Part shown: piece by piece, positions 661-52,100 of the stretch
How the letters are laid out: each line of letters starts with the position of its first letter
Numbering within the stretch: the stretch's first letter is position 1
From: Sipunculus nudus
Taxonomy: Eukaryota > Annelida > Sipuncula > Golfingiida > Sipunculidae
Direction: 5' to 3'
Length of the DNA: 64,000 nucleotides
Assembly (NCBI GenBank): GCA_026874595.1
Contig: CM049315.1
Location: 66,473,916 to 66,537,915 of the forward strand
Program-made: the position numbers and the translations under genes
Notes under the pieces: generated by a model
Seen by the model: the letters and a program-made list of their open reading frames with translations, nothing else
What the model was told of the DNA's origin: nothing
Database searches by the model: none

Positions 661-1695
661 GGTAAGAGCATATCATCGTCCTCTATCTGTATAATAACGG
701 AATCTGTGCATGAACTAATTCCGTCATTCAACTGACCTTGACCTTTAATACACGGATTACGGAATCTGGCTTGTTGTCCACTTTCCAGTTGACTGCACTG
801 GTAATATGGAGGTCCCCGCGACTGAAGTCCCGAACAAGTCCATAAGTGATGTCTGTTGGTGTGTCATCTTTAACTTTCGTCTCGCCAGCTTCCAACTTAT
901 GTAAACAGTCACAGGGCATGCAGGCAGCAACACAGATCACAAAAAAAACAAAAAAAAAAACAAGAAAGTCAGCTGTAAGTTAAAAGACCTGTTAAAATAA
1001 AAAACGATTACAAATAAGTACAGGCTCCCCTCGAACAACTTAACAGAGAGGGAGTTAGGTCTCTAGACTAGACGTAGACTGCGCCGCCACGATGGTTACG
1101 TATCCAATGTTCAGGGCTGATCTTGGGAGGCCCTAGTTGATCGTTCGGCCCGTCCGGGCCACTTAATAACTGTCCCCCATCTAAACTGACACAAACTTTT
1201 TCTTCACCTCTCGAACAATCCCCCTGCGGTTTCTGCCATGCAATTCTACGCTTCTGATCTCTGGTGTAACCACTTTTATCTCCCTTGCCGGACCCTGCGT
1301 TCTGAATTTTTCTCTCATTGCTCGCTTGTCTCTTCGGCCTCCCCCGGCTCCACTCGGGCGGCCCCGACTCATCCCGGCGCTCCACTATCGGACGACTCCA
1401 GATAACCAGTGTAACTGGTTCTTGTTTAAAATGGGGGAATTTGCATTGTTCATATTCATGTGTACTTGAAAAGTAATGGTCTAGCATTAATGCATTATAC
1501 CTGGCGTATATCCCATTTCACAGGTTCGCATTAGGCCTGTAGGCCTTGTTTTTTATATTTACCATAAAATTTCTCCTATATAGTTATAATGTAGATGTCA
1601 GAAATTAAGTCGGTATCATTTAATTTATAAAAGTTATGGACCAAAATATAGTTCACTTTGTAAAAAATCAGGACAAAAAATATTTACCTACTTAA
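661..1695 (-). other. Leader/candidate LTR region of the Gag element
   Basis: This kilobase lies upstream of the Gag remnant in element orientation. It contains a (A)n/(CA)-like tract at 940-962 and a GC-richer block at 1068-1400 that is open on the minus strand for 139 codons (1068-1487) but shows no recognisable domain and strong Arg/Gly/Pro bias. I treat that ORF as unsupported. Nothing else in the stretch is interpretable. No tRNA primer-binding site or clear TG...CA LTR ends could be fixed by eye. Confidence 0.3.
1441..1556. repeat. Dispersed repeat shared with 39312-39425 (candidate LTR fragment)
   Basis: The two stretches align in the same orientation. Shared blocks include a run beginning cattgttcata, then cttgaaaagtaatggtc, then a near-identical CAGGTTCGCATTAGGCC block followed by tgtaggccttgtt. 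Its place just upstream of a Gag remnant makes an LTR piece possible, but no TG...CA ends or duplication were found. The second copy has the 75-bp TIR element inserted immediately to its left. Confidence 0.6.
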
Positions 1696-1783: not shown

Positions 1784-4144
1784 CTTTATCAAGAACTAAA
1801 ATGAAAGAGCTAGAAAAAAGGATTAAGGTAACTTGTTCAAGCCAACCCTATGAACATGAAAATGCAAAAAAGGAAATGGAAAAATACATACAGGAAAAAA
1901 CTGAAGGAGCTATTTTAAGTTGTAAAGTAAGATGGTTAGAAGAAGGTGAAAAATACTAAATACTTTTTTAAATTTAGAAAAGAGAAATTATGCAAGGAAA
2001 ACAATGACCAGATTATATGTGAATGGAAAAATCATCAAAACCCCAACACTTATATCACAAGAACAATGAATTTTTATAGATATATTTATGTTTCAAAATT
2101 AATATGTGAACAAAATGTAATAAATAATGATTTTCTAAAAGGTAACCATTGAAAAATACCCGATGAAATAAAAATACAAATAGATGCCCCAATTACAGTG
2201 GATGAACTACATAACAGTTTAAAATCATTTAAAAACGGTAAAGCCCCAGGCATAGACGGGTTACCAGTGGAGTTCTTTAAGCAATTTTGGAATCCTTTAA
2301 AATTAGTTTTCCATAGAGCTGTTAATGATTCATTTGAAAGCAATATACTCACCTATTCCCAAAGACAGGGAATAGTGACACTTAAACCAAAACATCGGGA
2401 AGACCCTCTTTTATTGATAAAATGGAGACCGATAAGTTTAATGAATACTGATTATAAAATTATCACAAAAAACATTGCTAACCGTCTAAAATTAGCTTTA
2501 CATTCAATAATCAATGAGGATCAAATAGGCTTTTTAAAAATAGATATACCGGAGAAAATATAGTTCGAACACTGTCAATAATGGATTATTGTAAATATAA
2601 AAGAGAAGAAGCATACCTTTTAGTAACTGACTATGAAAAAGCTTTTGACAGCTTAGAATGGAAATTTATCATTCAAGCTTTATATAGAATATTTCAGTTT
2701 TGGTGATCAGATAATTAAATGGATTAAAACCATCTATAAAGATATTTCTAGTTCTATCATTAATAATGGTTGGTTATCATCATTCTTTAACATCTACTGA
2801 GGAATGAGGCAAGTTTGTCCTTTATGACGTTATTTATTTATAATCAGTGCTGAAATATTAGCAAATAACATTAGAAATCAAAAGAAGGTAAAGGGTATTG
2901 AGATAGGTGATCATAATTTTTTTTATATCGTCATATGCTGATGATACTAGTTTTACATTAAAAAATATAGAAAGTGTTAAATTAATATTACAAATATTGA
3001 AGAAATTTGAGCAAATATCAGGTTTAAAGGTGAATATTGAAAAATGCCAAATTATGCCACTTTATCACCATTTTAACAATTTGGAAACTCTGAAAAAATC
3101 GGTATTCAAATTACAGAAGGACCTCTAACAGTGTTAGGTGTAAAGATATCACAAAACATACATGATATTTAAGAAATTAATTATAATACAAGGATAGAGG
3201 AAGTGAGAGAATATTTGAAATTGTGGTCAAAACGATTACTTACCCACTATGGGAAAATACCTTTTTTGAAATCACAGGTTCCTTCGAAATTAATATATCT
3301 TCTATGTGTTTTCCCAACCCCTAATTCTGGATTAAAAATACAGTAACAAAATTGATGCGGGAATTTGTGTGGTCAAAGGGAAGAAAGAGAGTCAAATGGA
3401 TGACACTTATCGGGTCAAAAGAAAATGGAGAACTTGATGTAATAGATATAGATACACAAGAACAAGCTTTAAAAGTGTCCTGGATTAAAAGATTAAAAGT
3501 TGGTACAAAATTACATGTGCTTTTTACTAATGCACTAAAACCAGATTTCATGCTTGAATGCAACCTTAAGACAAAAGATGTGATCAATGTTTTTAAATTT
3601 AAATCCAATTTTTGGATTGATGTTGTAAAAGCATGGTTTAATTTTAATTATGATGAGATCAACAAATATAATGCATTACACCAAAATATATGGTTTAACT
3701 CTCACATCAAAATTGACGGAAAATTTTTTGTATATAAAGATATCAAAATATTAAAATGTAATTATATCAGAGATATAATAAGAAAAGATATAAAAGGGTT
3801 CAGACTTTTAACGCATAAAGAATTGATAAATAAATTTCATGGGAAATGTAATATTTTGCATTATGTTAGCCTACTAGATGCCATTTCAAAAGACTGGAAA
3901 GGCTACTTAGAACAATTAGATACTCAACACTAAGGTAAACCCAAAATTGAGATATTAAGAAATCAGAAGAAGCCATCAAGATTTGTAAACAATTATTTAA
4001 TTAATATGAAGTATATGAAACCATAAAAAAAATAAGTTCAACCTGGAAAAAAGAACTTTCTATTGAGGAAAAGTTGAATTTTAGAGGTTTTACAAATATT
4101 TATAAAAATTCAAACTCAACAAAATTAAGATATTTTCAGTTTTG

Positions 4145-4846
4145 TATAATGCATACGCTCCCGAGGCAGCGGAAATCTTGCGCTTTTAAAGAATCAACTG
4201 ATTTTCACTCTGCCAGTTTTGACCGTTTATGATATATTTAGAGACCAGATGGCGGTTCGTTGTCCGCTGAAATAAACGTGCGTATGATGTGACAAGCAGC
4301 CAATCAGATGCCAATAAACAAAGACTCGACAGGCATCCTGGCTCCGCCCATTGCTGCGCTTCAAGCGCCGCTTGATGAGTTTCCGGTCGAATTTAAATTG
4401 CTCCCTCTGCATTCTCGCATCATCGACCGGTTCCATTTAGACATTATGACTGTGTTAGCGTAGCCATGTATCTGTTGTCTGCAGAACTGAAACCAGCCAG
4501 CGAGGTGTGAACGCAGCCTTTGTTGTTACGTTTCGTTTGAATTACAGCTCACCGGCCGAGCATCCTATGTGCCCAAGGCCCTAAGCAAACCACGTCAGGG
4601 GCAATTCTCTCTGAGCCTGTGGCCTGTTCAGACGGTAACGCGGGGCGATGAGCTGTCACACAAAACGAAATGAACAGGATTGGCTCCGTGTATTCCTCGC
4701 TTGGCTTTGTCTTCCAGCACAAAGTCTCATCTGATTGGACAAAAATACAGTGCTCCCCTCTGGTGTAGCAATTCAGGATACGAGGTCATAACAAACAGGG
4801 CCTTACGATATAGGTAAAGCGCTGTGTAAAGAGCGTATATAATGCA
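4145..4846. mobile_element. 684-bp TIR element with 9-bp target duplication (MULE-like)
   Basis: The element occupies 4154-4837 and is flanked by the direct repeat TATAATGCA at 4145-4153 and 4838-4846. Left terminus TACGCTCCCGAGGCAGCG and right terminus (inverted) TACGCTCTTTACACAGCG match at 14 of 18 positions. A 9-bp duplication with short imperfect TIRs is typical of Mutator-like elements, but Merlin-type (8-9 bp) cannot be excluded. No transposase is evident. A 69-codon minus ORF (4227-4436), starting MEPVDDARMQREQFKFDRKL, is Arg/Lys-rich but unrecognised. It splits the LINE-A ORF2. A 75-bp relative lies at 39221-39295. Confidence 0.85.
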
Positions 4847-7652: not shown

Positions 7653-9630
7653 ATCCCCATATTTGTTTATATTAGTTTTAGAAATGTTAACACATCAAGT
7701 TCGTATAAATAAAAATATCCAAGGAGTCAATGTTGGTGCATATGAACTAAAAATGACATGTTTTGCAGATGACATAACTTTTTTTCATCAGGAGCACAGC
7801 TTCATTTGAACATTTAATTAGCACCATAAATGGGTTTTCACAATTTTCTTCAATGTCAATTATAATAAATCTGAGGCAGCCTGGATAGGTGCATGTAAAT
7901 ATAGTACACTAGAACCAGTTTCATGTAAATGGGTTAATTTGACAAAAGGGGCAATTAAAACTCTTGGCATGTGGCACTCATATGATAAAGATATCAGTTG
8001 GAAACTTAATTTTGATAATGTGAGAGAACAATTGAAAAAAAATCTTGATTGTGAGGTCAAGCAGAAATTTACATTATTTGGAAGGGCAGAAATTTGTAGA
8101 ACATTAGCTTTATCCAAAGTAATATACGTATACAATATGCATGTAACACCTCAGTCATTCATAGATATTGTTATGTCAATGATGAAACATTTTGTATGGA
8201 GAGAAAAAAAAACAAAGGTCAGATATAGTACACTGATAGGACCATACCATAAAGGTGGTATGAAATTTGAAGACTTAGCAAGCAGACTGAAATCTCAAAG
8301 AATAATTTGGATTAAAAGGCTGATTCTATGTAATAGTGCTTATGCATGGAAAGCTGTACCAATGTTTTATCTTGAGAAAATAGGTGGAGTTGCCAATGTG
8401 TCTTCAAACTTTGAATACCATAGAATACCATCTAAGACACCAGGCTTTTATAAACAATGTTTGGAAGATTGGTCACAATTTGTTTCAAAAGATCCAACCA
8501 TAAAAAATGAGGTAAAACTGCAACCTCTGTGGAACAATAGGTGGATTAGAGTGAATAAAAAGTCAGTGTATTGCAAATATTTGGACTGATGTGGAATAAG
8601 GTTTGCAAAAGACTTGGTTTCAAAGGAAGGAAAAATGCTACAATGGTATGAATTGATTAAAAAATATCCAGATATTAGTACAGGAGTCTATTTCAAATGG
8701 AGATCTGTATTAGCTGCAATACCATGTAACTGGCTAAAATTATTGCGAGACGAGGATATCAAATCTAATGAAGGTATATCAGAGGAGCATATCATAATTA
8801 CAACTAAGGGTATTACAAATATACAATCTTTGTCTTCTAAATATGTTTATGATCTGAACCACCCTCATCATTGGTCAAGTTTAGACATACAATACAGGAT
8901 GATAATATCAACTGGGAGAGTTACTTTGGAGCCATCCAAAAAATCTCATTGGATATGTACTCATGGGAATTCTTATTTAAATTACTCCATAACTATTTAC
9001 CAACGAATAGTTTACTTTACAAATGGAAATTGGTTGATAGTTATCGATGTTCTTATTACTTCATAGAATTAGAGATCAAGGAACACATTTTTTATGAATG
9101 TTTTGTAACAAAAAATCTAAATTTTAGAATTGTGGATTGGATGAAATCAAATACAAAGTATTGTATGGAATGTTTTCAATTAAGAATAACCTTCTAATAA
9201 ATCAGGTGCTCTTACATTTAAAATGTGTGTATATCAAAGTAGAAAGGAAAATAATCAAAACACAAGCAATTTAATGCCAGTTTTTTTAGGAGATTGAAAT
9301 ATATAGAGAAAATTGAATATATAATAGCAAAGCAGAAAAATAAGATTACTGCACATTTAGAAAAATGGAAAGGAAGCATTTTTAACATACAGTAGCATTG
9401 TAGTTTGAGAATTAAAAGAAAAAGCAAGGGGTTAATTGATTCTGCAAAGATTACGTATATACTGCATGTACAAATTACAAGTATTGAAAATTTGAAGTAT
9501 AGTTGTAATAATATCCAGAGAATGTGCTTTGTATATATTTGTATATATTGTATTTGATATGATTGTGTATAGTTATGTGTGTCGTGTATTGTATGATTTT
9601 TCAGCAATAAAAATTATGATTAAAAAAAAA
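7653..9630 (+). mobile_element. LINE-B: 5'-truncated L1/Tx1-like LINE copy
   Basis: Starts abruptly inside RT with SPYLFILVLEMLTHQV (about 7653) and ends at AATTATGATTAAAAAAAAA (9612-9630). A short direct repeat, aaggctcc, at 7640-7647 and 9629-9636 may be its target duplication, but eight bases is weak evidence. The body is a continuous C-terminal ORF2 region in the same style as LINE-A. No ORF1, endonuclease or N-terminal RT is present, so it is a short truncated insertion. Confidence 0.8.
7656..9197 (+). pseudogene. ORF2 C-terminal half of LINE-B (FADD box onward)
   Basis: The RT catalytic box is FADD (frame of TCFADDITFF, near 7755-7785), a Y-to-F variant also known in active LINEs. After a frameshift, 7939-8589 is open for 216 codons and carries HFVWREKKTKVRYSTLIGP and IIWIKRLIL, the usual segment after RT in L1-type proteins. 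8614-9066 continues, and a +1 shift passes to 8871-9197 with FKLLHNYLPTNSLLYKWKL and a decayed terminal Cys/His region. The stop at 8587-8589 is a single in-frame break between two otherwise collinear pieces. Not functional. Confidence 0.8.
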
Positions 9631-39010: not shown

Positions 39011-39211
39011 CTGCAGACATCCAGGCTATAATGCAACACACCTCACTCTATTTCCCCTTGCCACTCAATCCATGCCTCACTTCACCTTTCCCACTCTGAT
39101 TTTGGAGGATACACGTAGTCGCTTGTTGACTACCCATATTCAAGTTTTTGTGTTGTGTGCACCCATGTCAGAATTGCAGCAGTGATGTTTGTTTAATTGT
39201 TTCTTGTTCTA

Positions 39212-39304
39212 AGTGTTTAGTACGCTCCCGAGGCAGCGGAAATCTTGCGCTTCTAGGTAGTAGCCCTATAGGTAAAGCGCTGTGTAAAGAGCGTAAGTGT
39301 TTAG
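39212..39304. mobile_element. 75-bp TIR element with 9-bp target duplication
   Basis: The element is 39221-39295, flanked by AGTGTTTAG on both sides (39212-39220, 39296-39304). Its first 32 bp match 4154-4185 and its last ~29 bp match the right end of the 684-bp element. Only ~14 bp in the middle are unrelated. It is an extreme internal-deletion derivative that still carries the terminal sequences and generated a fresh 9-bp duplication. Confidence 0.9.
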
Positions 39305-39600
39305 TACTTACATTGTTCATATACATGTTACACATGTTCTTGAAAAGTAATGGTCCGGCATTGAAGCATTATATCTGGTGTAATCTCATTGCACAGGTTC
39401 GCATTAGGCCTGTAGGCCTTGTTTATAATTCAGCTCTTTTATCCGGCCAAATTAGTCCACAACCTGTAATCACGATGCACGGATAATACACTCGCACAGC
39501 GACAGTCCACCGAGCCACAAATCTTGAAAGCGAGAGCCCTCAAAAGTCCGGACCAGCCAACATCGACCGGAACCGGAAGTCTTGGTAACTGTAGGGTTAG
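39305..39600. repeat. Second copy of the 1441-1556 repeat and adjoining GC-richer DNA
   Basis: 39312-39425 aligns with 1441-1556. The following ~170 bp (cggccaaattagtccac... to ggaagtcttgg) has no partner visible in the window. Confidence 0.55.
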
Positions 39601-49155: not shown

Positions 49156-52100
49156 GTAAGTAAGAGTTTATTCAGGAATAGAGGCCTCAGGCCCAAAGTT
49201 CCAACTGTACATTCATTTTGCCATAATATTAACAAACAAATACTTACAAACATGTGCATTCAAAGTTATATCAAATATAAATAAATACTTGTGATTCTGT
49301 AAGATAGAAAGAACATTCCTAAGAGAGAATAAAAAAAAAAACAAAAAAAAACCAAACAAACATAATTAAAAATTCTCCCATGTATTACAAAGTGGTACTA
49401 TAAAAATATCAATTATCTAATATTTTTTGTCTTTTTATAAAACCATAGTGAACAAAGGCTGCTAAATTTGAAATTTCTAACAGATTTTCCAAATTGAAAA
49501 TTCTTTTAAAATTATATTCATCAGGCTGTAGCATATCATTTCTTAAATATTTCACACGTAGATCATTATACAAAGGGCATTCTAACATAAAATGACATTC
49601 ATCAGTATTTGCATATTCTTTCTTCACTATCAATTCCTTTATGTCGACCTGATTCTACTGCTAATTCATGGTTGCTACATCTCAATTTGGCGAGTGCCTT
49701 GTAATATTTTTTACAAGGTACACATAATAAATACTTTTCTACTGTTAACAATGATTTGAAAATTCCATAAAAATACAATTTATTACTGGAGTTAATATCA
49801 TTATGCCAATCTTGTACTGCCATGTCTTTTACTCGTTGCTTAAACTGTTCAATAAAAATATTTATATCTCCCTCATATTCTATCATCCACACATAACCAA
49901 ATCCTGCCTGAAATAGTAATGTTCTAATATAAGTGGCCAAATTAATTTTCCATTGTTGTCCATCTTCCTTAAATACATATATAACTGCTTTGGGTATCTA
50001 TTGTCTTCCATGTGAATAATTTTAAACCAGTATTTTATACAACGAACCACATATGTAACAAAAAGAGGAAATCTGCCACAATCACCTAAAGCTGCTGCAT
50101 TTGGAGTGTTATCACCTACACCAAGAACATACTTACAAAACTTATACTGTACTCTCTCTAGTATTTCAATTTTAGAATGACCCCAGATCTCACTTCATAC
50201 ATTAAAATTGGTGCTACCATACCGTCAAACAAATTAAAAAGATGTTTCACAGATACTTTCTTATACCTTACATTAAAATCCCTGATAATACTTATAGCTT
50301 TATTTGCCTGCATTGCTTGCTGTTGGTGGGTCCTAGTACATGATAATTTTGAAGTTAAAGTGATCCCCAGATATTTATAGTGGGACACTTCATCCAATTT
50401 ATGGTTGAACAAATACCATTTTTCATTATTCCTTAATATACCACCTCTTCTAAACACTATTATTTTTGTTTTGTCCATGTTTATATTTAATCCATATCTT
50501 ATACAAAATTCCTGCAGATGATTAATTTGTTGTTGTAGTCTCCCAACTGAATCTCCAAAATTAACTATATCATCAGCATACATCAAGGTCATAATATTAG
50601 GTAGCTCTTCATTTATGAAAATTCCTTTACAATCAGAGTTGCACAAAGTATTACAGTATTCATCAATAAATATAGAAAAAAGTAGAGGACTTACCATACA
50701 ACCCTGTCTTGTTCCAACTGAACAAGGGAAATAACTTGTGATTCCCTTGTCTGTAATGACACATGATTGCATTTTGGAGTACATTGATCTAATTACTTTA
50801 ACTATCCTACCATTTATGTTTTGTTTTAAAAGTAAATACCACAATACATCATTGAACAGAATCAAAAGCTTTGCTAAAATCTACAAATATAAAATAAAAC
50901 CTTCCCTTCCTTTTGCATAAATACTTATGAGCAAGGCTTGCAGAACAAAAGCATGATCTATGGTGGTATATCCTTTTCTGTATCCAGCTGGTGCTTCTGA
51001 TAATAGATTCTGGGTTTCAACATATTCATTCAACCTGTTATATAAGACTTTTGAGAATATTTTCCCTAGGACATTCAATAAAGAAATACCTCTATAATTT
51101 TCTGGGTGATTCATTGGACCTTTTTTATGTAAGGGCAATATTATTGCTCTGCTCCAATCATCTGGAAATACACCTGAATGTAATATACTATTAAATAATG
51201 TTTCTATTAAGGGTAGAAGGTGAAATAAAATGTCTTTAATTATTTCTAAAGAAAAGCCATCTGGTCCGGGGGATTTTCCCCTTTGCATTTGATCTATAGC
51301 ATTTGTTATTTCAAAATTAGTAATATCAGAGTTTAAAACCTCGCACTCATGTTGTTCAATGTAATTTTTGTTAAAAAAGCTGATAAAGCCATCCATTCTG
51401 TCTCCAGGAATCTCAGTTTTACAGTTATTTAATAGATCTTTGAAGTAAAAGTACCATTGAATAGGTTCTATATTTGACATAGTCTTAGATCTCTTAAAAT
51501 TCTGTACATATTTCCAAATGTCATTATTATTTTTGGATTGTAAGGTTTCCTTTAAAGTATTTTGTTGGTACATTTCCTTTTTTGTATTACACAAACATTT
51601 AAAGGCATGTGTTTTTCTTTTGTAATCATCCAAATCTTCTGTTCTCCCAGATTTTCTGTAATTTGTTAGAGCATCCATTTTTTTTTTTTTTGCAATACCA
51701 CAGTCTTCATCCCACCAGATTGGTTGGGATAATTTAGTGGAATTATTTTGGTATGGCCTGCCAGTAGTTATTGTATAAATTATCCTATTTAAGTTCATAA
51801 CTGCTTCGTTTACATCTAAGGTAGCAGCATTTTTGAAGTCTTGGACATATTTAACACACACATCTTGTCCAAATATGCTATTAATAGCACATAAGTCATT
51901 GGATTTTAGTTTGTACTTGATCCACGGTGCAGTTTCAATTGTCTTACTAAATTTTTTTAAAACCTGCTTTTAACATATAAGTACATTGTACAGGAAAGTG
52001 ATCTGATAATTCCATGTTTAGTACAGAAAATGAACTTGTACTTTTAAATAACTCAGAGCTCACAATTATGTAATCAAACTCTGTCCTGAGTGTGTTACAC

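What the first reader, a model, noticed from the sequence alone, without database searches (positions are those of the whole stretch)
39212..39304. A 75-bp mobile element with intact ends and a fresh 9-bp duplication
Only ~32 bp of the left end and ~29 bp of the right end of the 684-bp element remain, yet the element is flanked by a perfect 9-bp duplication (AGTGTTTAG) distinct from the larger copy's TATAATGCA. It is among the shortest plausible DNA transposons and would define the minimal cis sequence for mobility.
Basis: partly seen in the sequence, partly recalled or inferred. Interest (0 to 1): 0.75.

Follow-up and report, generated by a model that had tools for sequence, protein, structure and literature searches.

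The report
Collapsed transposon ends, not minimal mobile element
The 75-base insert is real and sits in a clean 9-base duplication, but it looks like one of many one-off collapse scars of a transposon family in this large genome, each joined differently some 40 to 50 bases in from the ends, rather than the smallest element able to jump.

Summary
Confirmed: a 75-bp element at window 39221-39295 between perfect 9-bp duplications (AGTGTTTAG). Its arms equal the ends of the family's 699-bp form (left 33-35, right 40-42 bp, 2-bp overlap). The window's 684-bp copy lacks 15 bp that the 75-mer keeps, so it is not the parent. All 40 scored copies of the host repeat are empty at the site.
It does not prove mobility, because junctions mostly differ: 22 of 27 fitted ones are distinct, and 6 coincident pairs compare with 7.8 expected from independent microhomology joining. 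Short copies form a discrete size class with narrow arm lengths (39.6±5.6 and 44.4±3.9 bp).
A partner with the same ends, 13,046 bp apart between identical 9-bp flanks, lies on contig C3. It holds DUF6589 and helicase ORFs and resembles AcademH. In its subfamily 22 independent copies are short and 3 long (input).
Best reading: scars of failed gap repair after excision, not propagating mini-transposons. Collapse during insertion, and rare re-mobilisation of a short copy, are not excluded.

The parts
39212..39220 (.). left 9-bp target site duplication AGTGTTTAG
   Evidence: single copy in the empty host repeat
39221..39295 (+). 75-bp collapsed element, ends TACGCTC...GAGCGTA
39221..39255 (+). 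left arm, identical to the first 33-35 bp of the 699-bp form (type copy L018)
39254..39255 (+). junction overlap (2-bp microhomology TA)
39256..39295 (+). right arm, identical to the last 40-42 bp of the 699-bp form
39296..39304 (.). right 9-bp target site duplication AGTGTTTAG
39091..39434 (+). part of the high-copy host repeat into which the element is inserted (130 bp on each side)
   Evidence: 2542 first-look candidates, 40 scored, all 40 empty at the site, 96-98% identity
4154..4837 (+). 684-bp member of the same family, lacking 15 bp of the right end; TSD TATAATGCA at 4145-4153 and 4838-4846

Best explanation
The 75-mer is a one-off collapse product of a longer copy of its family: DNA between the two ends was lost and the ends were joined at a short overlap. 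It is not a propagating mini-transposon. Shown: structure, TSD, empty site, mostly private junctions, a discrete size class, a long element with the same ends. Inferred: the most likely step is abortive gap repair after a transposase excised a copy. Repair synthesis from both flanks restored about 40-45 bp of each end, stopped, and the stubs were end-joined, leaving a scar inside the original TSD. Elements of 699 bp are usually restored in full; the 13-kb partner rarely is, so its past sites are mostly scars. The narrow arm length is inferred to reflect either transposase-covered ends or the subterminal palindromes (left 29-42, right 26-44 from the end).
For: Empty site in 40 of 40 scored host-repeat copies of 2542 candidates. 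Of 99 loci 15 (13 independent) have the right end at 83-107 bp, one at 331, and no other has a recognisable right end between 108 and 400 bp. 57 independent short copies of 68-111 bp; 40 of 57 have a perfect TSD: 33 of 9 bp, 5 of 8, 2 of 10. 27 fitted junctions: mean overlap 1.81 bp against 0.65 for random joins; 22 distinct, 6 coincident pairs, 7.8 expected at the microhomology weight closest to the data. The same junction on different parental variants: win75/L100, L101/L146, L102/L104. Long partner: left end C3:42843199, right end 42856244, AATTTTTTA on both sides, DUF6589, Helicase_C. Size dependence: 22 short and 3 long in the partner's subfamily against 11 short and 82 not short in the C1 sample (test). 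Tan et al. 2021 (PMC8277862; [quoted passage not shown]
Against: Classical abortive gap repair should give a broad spread of deletion sizes; the near absence of copies of 108-400 bp and the narrow arm lengths need an extra stop signal that was not shown. No locus was found where a long and a short form share one site and TSD; for the window site only the short form was found. Six of 57 short copies have no recognisable TSD (L063, L071, L125, L140, L145, L159), which this model does not explain. The identical pair L026/L123 could be a transposed short copy.
Confidence: 0.6

Rival explanations
1. Collapse at the target: the transposase inserts two ends whose connecting DNA was broken or degraded. 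Resection stops at the transposase-covered ends, end joining closes the gap, and a short copy appears at a new site with a fresh TSD.
For: Would explain the narrow arm lengths, the missing intermediate sizes, private junctions, and the excess of short copies in the 13-kb subfamily.
Against: No direct evidence; needs a broken element to integrate. Predicts the same static structure as in-place repair.
Confidence: 0.25
2. The short form is a mobile minimal transposon.
For: Intact ends, perfect TSDs, many copies. Identical 95-mers L026/L123 at two sites with different perfect TSDs; one junction at three sites, L040/L140/L141, though L140 has no TSD. Made1, 80 bp, shows that a MITE this short can exist in many copies (passages of PMC1784062, for its length; its copy number is recalled).
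Against: Among 57 independent short copies only one pair is identical. Fitted junctions are mostly distinct and coincidences are at the level expected for independent events. In the exact-arm searches (8 and 9 hits, 16 independent) there are 11 junction positions by eye, and 3 of the 4 recurrent ones sit on different parental variants.
Confidence: 0.1
3. Ordinary random in-place deletion (slippage, break repair) unrelated to transposition.
For: Lengths of 635-690 bp among the long copies show ordinary internal indels. Microhomology fits end joining.
Against: Fitted breakpoints confined to about 26-51 and 36-53 bp from the ends, and almost no intermediate sizes. Strong dependence on subfamily.
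Confidence: 0.05

Closest known systems
Abortive or interrupted gap repair derivatives (Ds from Ac, Rubin and Levy 1997; MuDR, Hsia and Schnable 1996; contents recalled, seen only as references)
   Same: Internal deletion with both ends and TSD kept, junctions at short repeats, private events
   Different: Here the remnant is nearly always only 68-111 bp, with narrow arm lengths, in many independent copies
Made1, 80-bp MITE of Hsmar1 (PMC1784062, abstract and passages)
   Same: End-only derivative of similar length
   Different: Made1 has two 37-bp TIRs and 6 bp between; here copies have many different junctions and imperfect TIRs
AcademH DNA transposons (passages of PMC10045372; Kojima 2020 itself not held)
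   Same: 9 or 10 bp TSD, helicase encoded
   Different: The transposase could not be compared; here the main ORF matches Pfam DUF6589, named as of unknown function. 8-bp TSDs also occur
Pack-TIR gap filling (Tan et al. 2021, PMC8277862, abstract, section 8 and passages)
   Same: Single events inside TIR elements, often with microhomology
   Different: Their breakpoints lie internally with small gaps and captured filler; here nearly the whole interior is lost, and I recognised no filler in the fitted junctions

Membership tests
AcademH | 9 or 10 bp TSD | tested here: met
   Of 57 short copies 33 have a perfect 9-bp, 2 a 10-bp and 5 an 8-bp TSD; 17 are imperfect or lack one. The 13-kb copy has the same 9 bases on both sides
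AcademH | helicase encoded between the ends | tested here: met
   Minus-strand ORF within the C3 element, Helicase_C PF00271 E 8e-13; one copy read
AcademH | Academ-type DDD/E transposase | not testable with these tools
   The main ORF is DUF6589 (E 1.5e-39). That the Pfam copy has no Academ model is recalled, not searched. PDB gave only E 0.68 and worse; no paper with DUF6589
MULE (MuDR) | MULE transposase lying between these ends | tested here: inconclusive
   131 PF10551 matches in the genome; 2 of 131 read, without these ends in the 7.0 and 3.5 kb read
MITE | short, with terminal inverted repeats and TSDs | tested here: met
   699-bp and 75-bp forms; absence of a coding sequence judged by length only
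MITE | homogeneous copies amplified from one deleted copy (short class) | tested here: not met
   22 of 27 fitted junctions distinct, coincidences as expected for independent events; one identical pair among 57. The 699-bp class was not tested this way
abortive gap repair derivative | long precursor at the same site with the same TSD | tested here: inconclusive
   No second copy of the host repeat carries an element at this site; no relatives were available

The most novel reading that the evidence does not exclude
A large DUF6589 plus helicase transposon (AcademH-like) seldom leaves partial copies. It collapses to some 40-55 bp of each end at nearly every site it has used, by a process whose length scale is set by the transposase-covered ends or subterminal palindromes. 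The scars then record its past positions and read out the protein footprint, and DUF6589 is the transposase.
Probability: 0.35. Interest if true: 0.75.

Novelty: new variant of a known kind. Interest (0 to 1): 0.58.

Why it matters
Many ultrashort copies with clean TSDs need not mean that an ultrashort element jumps: the junctions must be compared first. The tight arm lengths suggest a footprint or stall point that can be tested, and give a natural set of many independent repair events at one kind of break. The partner also links Pfam DUF6589, named as of unknown function, to an element bounded by matching ends and a TSD.

Tried and rejected
Rejected: derivation from the window's 684-bp copy (it lacks 15 bp that the 75-mer keeps). 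Rejected: filler DNA at the window junction, because the apparent filler GGTAGTAGCCC belongs to the 699-bp right end. Not supported but not excluded: a MULE partner (131 matches, 2 read, no shared ends). No sign of length periodicity (vector strength at most 0.09 for the six periods tried between 10 and 11). Viral contigs held no match to peptide patterns of the DUF6589 protein. PDB hits were chance-level. Not done: structure prediction of the DUF6589 protein, because its locus came from the fetch from genomes, which structure prediction does not list as a source. A genome-wide census of short copies was not possible: one search listed only the first 100 of its places. A first Fisher test used provisional counts (22/3 against 14/80) and is replaced.

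Full report
Observation. The window holds a 75-bp element at 39221-39295 between two copies of AGTGTTTAG. Its end sequences occur twice in the window, in this element and in the 684-bp one, against about 0 in shuffles. The window lies in a 1.43-Gb genome in 153 contigs, where the 18-base left end with up to 3 mismatches occurs 3139 + 3108 times against 45 + 41 for the reversed control.

Anatomy. One search listed 100 exact left ends, all on contig C1. I read 99 as anchored loci; the hundredth lies 71 bp inside L088, where a second left end follows the first. The common full form is 699 bp (type copy L018), with a related form of 455-476 bp. The 75-mer equals the first 33-35 and last 40-42 bp of the 699-mer with no mismatch. 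The 684-bp window copy lacks 15 bp of that right end, so it is not the direct parent.

The site. The 75-mer sits in an abundant repeat. The joined flanks, with one AGTGTTTAG, found 2542 first-look candidates; all 40 that were scored run through the junction at 96-98% identity. The left junction of flank and element occurs once in the genome with up to 3 mismatches. So an insertion happened here after this host-repeat copy arose, and no long-element version of this site was found.

Short copies are a discrete class. Of the 99 loci, 15 have a right end 83-107 bp from the left end (L008, L022, L026, L030, L033, L040, L051, L059, L060, L063, L070, L071, L079, L081, L089; in L079, L081 and L089 the right end has 4 differences from the pattern). 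L059/L060 and L079/L081 share flanks, so 13 are independent. L096 is 331 bp. L015 looks like a short copy with a later insertion (592 bp in all), and L006 is unclear. The other loci have right ends at 423 bp or more, or no recognisable right end within the stretch read; for 29 loci only 520 bp was read.

Junctions. A DNA search with the 93-base query scored 40 of 1425 candidates. I fetched 20 of the 40; all 20 are short, 68-90 bp. Many of the lower-ranked hits match the right arm alone and were not fetched. Further short copies came from gapped patterns (8 and 9 hits; 10 fetched) and from a subfamily search (38 places). These later sets are not random: the DNA search favours copies like the window one, and the subfamily pattern needs about 48 bp of left arm. 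Over all sets I assembled 64 short copies. Dropping 7 co-duplicates leaves 57, of 68-111 bp; L120, L124, L138, L150-L152, L155, L157 and L158 were left out beforehand as long, unclear or disrupted, and L060, L079 and L081 were not entered. 40 of 57 have a perfect TSD: 33 of 9 bp, 5 of 8 bp, 2 of 10 bp. Eleven more are imperfect, and six (L063, L071, L125, L140, L145, L159) have no recognisable one. For 27 of 57 the two arms fit long copies with at most 2 mismatches and one continuous breakpoint range; the other 30 do not, in good part because no long parent of their subfamily was among the parents used. In the 27, left arms average 39.6 (sd 5.6) and right arms 44.4 (sd 3.9) bp, and the joint overlaps by 1.81 bp on average against 0.65 for random joins in the same ranges.

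Do short copies spread? If they did, junctions would be shared beyond chance. 22 of 27 junctions are distinct; there are 6 coincident pairs. Two of the six rest on L144, which has 2 mismatches and may be a different joint, so 4 to 6 is the fair count. Independent joining, weighted so that the mean overlap is 1.87, predicts 7.8; with a weight giving 1.40 it predicts 3.2. This model uses one parent sequence and even breakpoints in the observed ranges. In the exact-arm searches, by eye, 16 independent hits show 11 junction positions; of the four that recur, three sit on different parental variants such as GGTAGTAG and GGAAGTAG, which means separate origins, and one (L040, L140, L141; 4-bp overlap) sits on one variant. 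Among all 57 only L026 and L123 are identical: two 95-mers on C1 and C6 with different perfect TSDs, again at a 4-bp overlap. Rare movement of short forms is therefore not excluded, but there is no sign of a propagating short lineage.

The partner. In the subfamily with left arm GGCAATCTTACGCTTCTACAGAAGCTACCGG, copy L120/L150 on C3 is long. Its first 182-230 bp are about 75-79% identical to copies of the 699-bp family. It carries a 554-codon open frame matching DUF6589 (E 1.5e-39) and, on the other strand, a frame with Helicase_C (8e-13). The right arm matches exactly at C3:42856199. The right end followed by AATTTTTTA matches exactly at C3:42856226-42856253, the same nine bases that precede the left end. 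One search found 15 places within 2 mismatches; one other, on C1, was also exact, a reminder that AT-rich flanks can agree by chance among thousands of ends. Taken together the element is 13,046 bp (42843199-42856244). I did not read its last 2.7 kb. Of 26 DUF6589 matches in the genome this is the only one covering nearly the whole domain in one stop-free frame; two neighbouring matches at C10:71205094-71208568 together cover most of it without stops and may be a second, split copy, which I did not read. A further long copy, on C12, is alike for about 4.15 kb and lies in a tandem repeat. The interior left sequence occurs at 4 places, 3 independent.

Size dependence. Of the 38 places, 33 are resolved by reading or by paired arms: 7 are co-duplicates, leaving 26 independent: 22 short (3 of them judged only by arm distance), 3 long (L120, L138, L155; the last belongs by its interior to the other families) and 1 unclear (L124). 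Five were not read. In the C1 sample without this subfamily, and without L060 and L081, it is 11 short, 82 not short and 2 unclear. The difference is strong (Fisher p 7e-13), though the two sets were drawn with different patterns. Among the 19 short copies of this subfamily whose sequence I read there are 16 distinct junctions by eye.

Mechanism. Loss of the interior with short overlaps at the joint, retention of both ends and mostly of the TSD, mostly private junctions, and a higher share in the 13-kb subfamily all fit excision followed by failed gap repair, in which vacated sites keep only the first restored bases. Tan et al. 2021 (PMC8277862, section 8) expect this route to give larger deletions with breakpoints near the ends. 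In yeast assays of other elements larger size lowered excision and reinsertion (passages of PMC10288884), which could equally favour collapse during insertion. The narrow arm lengths are not explained by failed repair alone. Both arms of the 699-mer contain a palindrome just there (left 29-42, right 26-44 from the end), and a transposase footprint of that size is plausible; either could set the stop, and neither was tested. The 75-mer itself has lost part of both palindromes.

Classification. TSDs of mostly 9 bp and an encoded helicase agree with AcademH, which is said to generate 9 or 10 bp TSDs (passage of PMC10045372). The defining paper is not held and the transposase could not be compared, so I call the partner AcademH-like. 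DUF6589 was found in 0 papers of the open-licence library, so a link between this domain and a bounded transposon may be unreported; that one search is the only support.

Verdict. The claim of a minimal mobile element is not supported: the copy looks like a collapse scar of a discrete, recurrent kind. That recurrence, with its narrow length scale, is the interesting part.

Noticed in passing
G000:C3:42843199-42856244 (L150, L163, L164): A 13-kb element with DUF6589 and helicase ORFs between matching ends and the same 9-bp flank; last 2.7 kb not read.
   Followed up: partly
G000:C10:71205094-71208568: Two adjacent stop-free DUF6589 matches that together cover most of the domain; possibly a second, intron-split copy.
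   Followed up: no
window 39091-39434: The insertion lies in a repeat with at least 40 copies at 96-98% identity (2542 candidates); part of it recurs at window 1457-1551 at 88%.
   Followed up: partly
L160 (C10:17572000-17579000): One copy of a very uniform repeat family (dozens of matches with the same score) with a 607-codon MULE-domain frame, a 500-codon frame and, on the other strand, a 441-codon frame; no long inverted ends in the 7 kb read.
   Followed up: no
L122/L128/L136 and L129/L131/L137: Two different short copies about 16-19 kb apart recur together on C6, C12 and C14 with the same flanks, so a unit of that size has probably been duplicated to three chromosomes.
   Followed up: no
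L088: A second left end starts 71 bp inside another copy, apparently a self-insertion of the family.
   Followed up: no
L157, L158: A short copy with the same junction sits in two copies of another repeat, so the insert seems to have been carried along by that repeat.
   Followed up: no
window 50158-51969, 3325-3933, 7822-8589: Long open frames that look like pieces of reverse-transcriptase retrotransposons (judged by eye, not searched).
   Followed up: no
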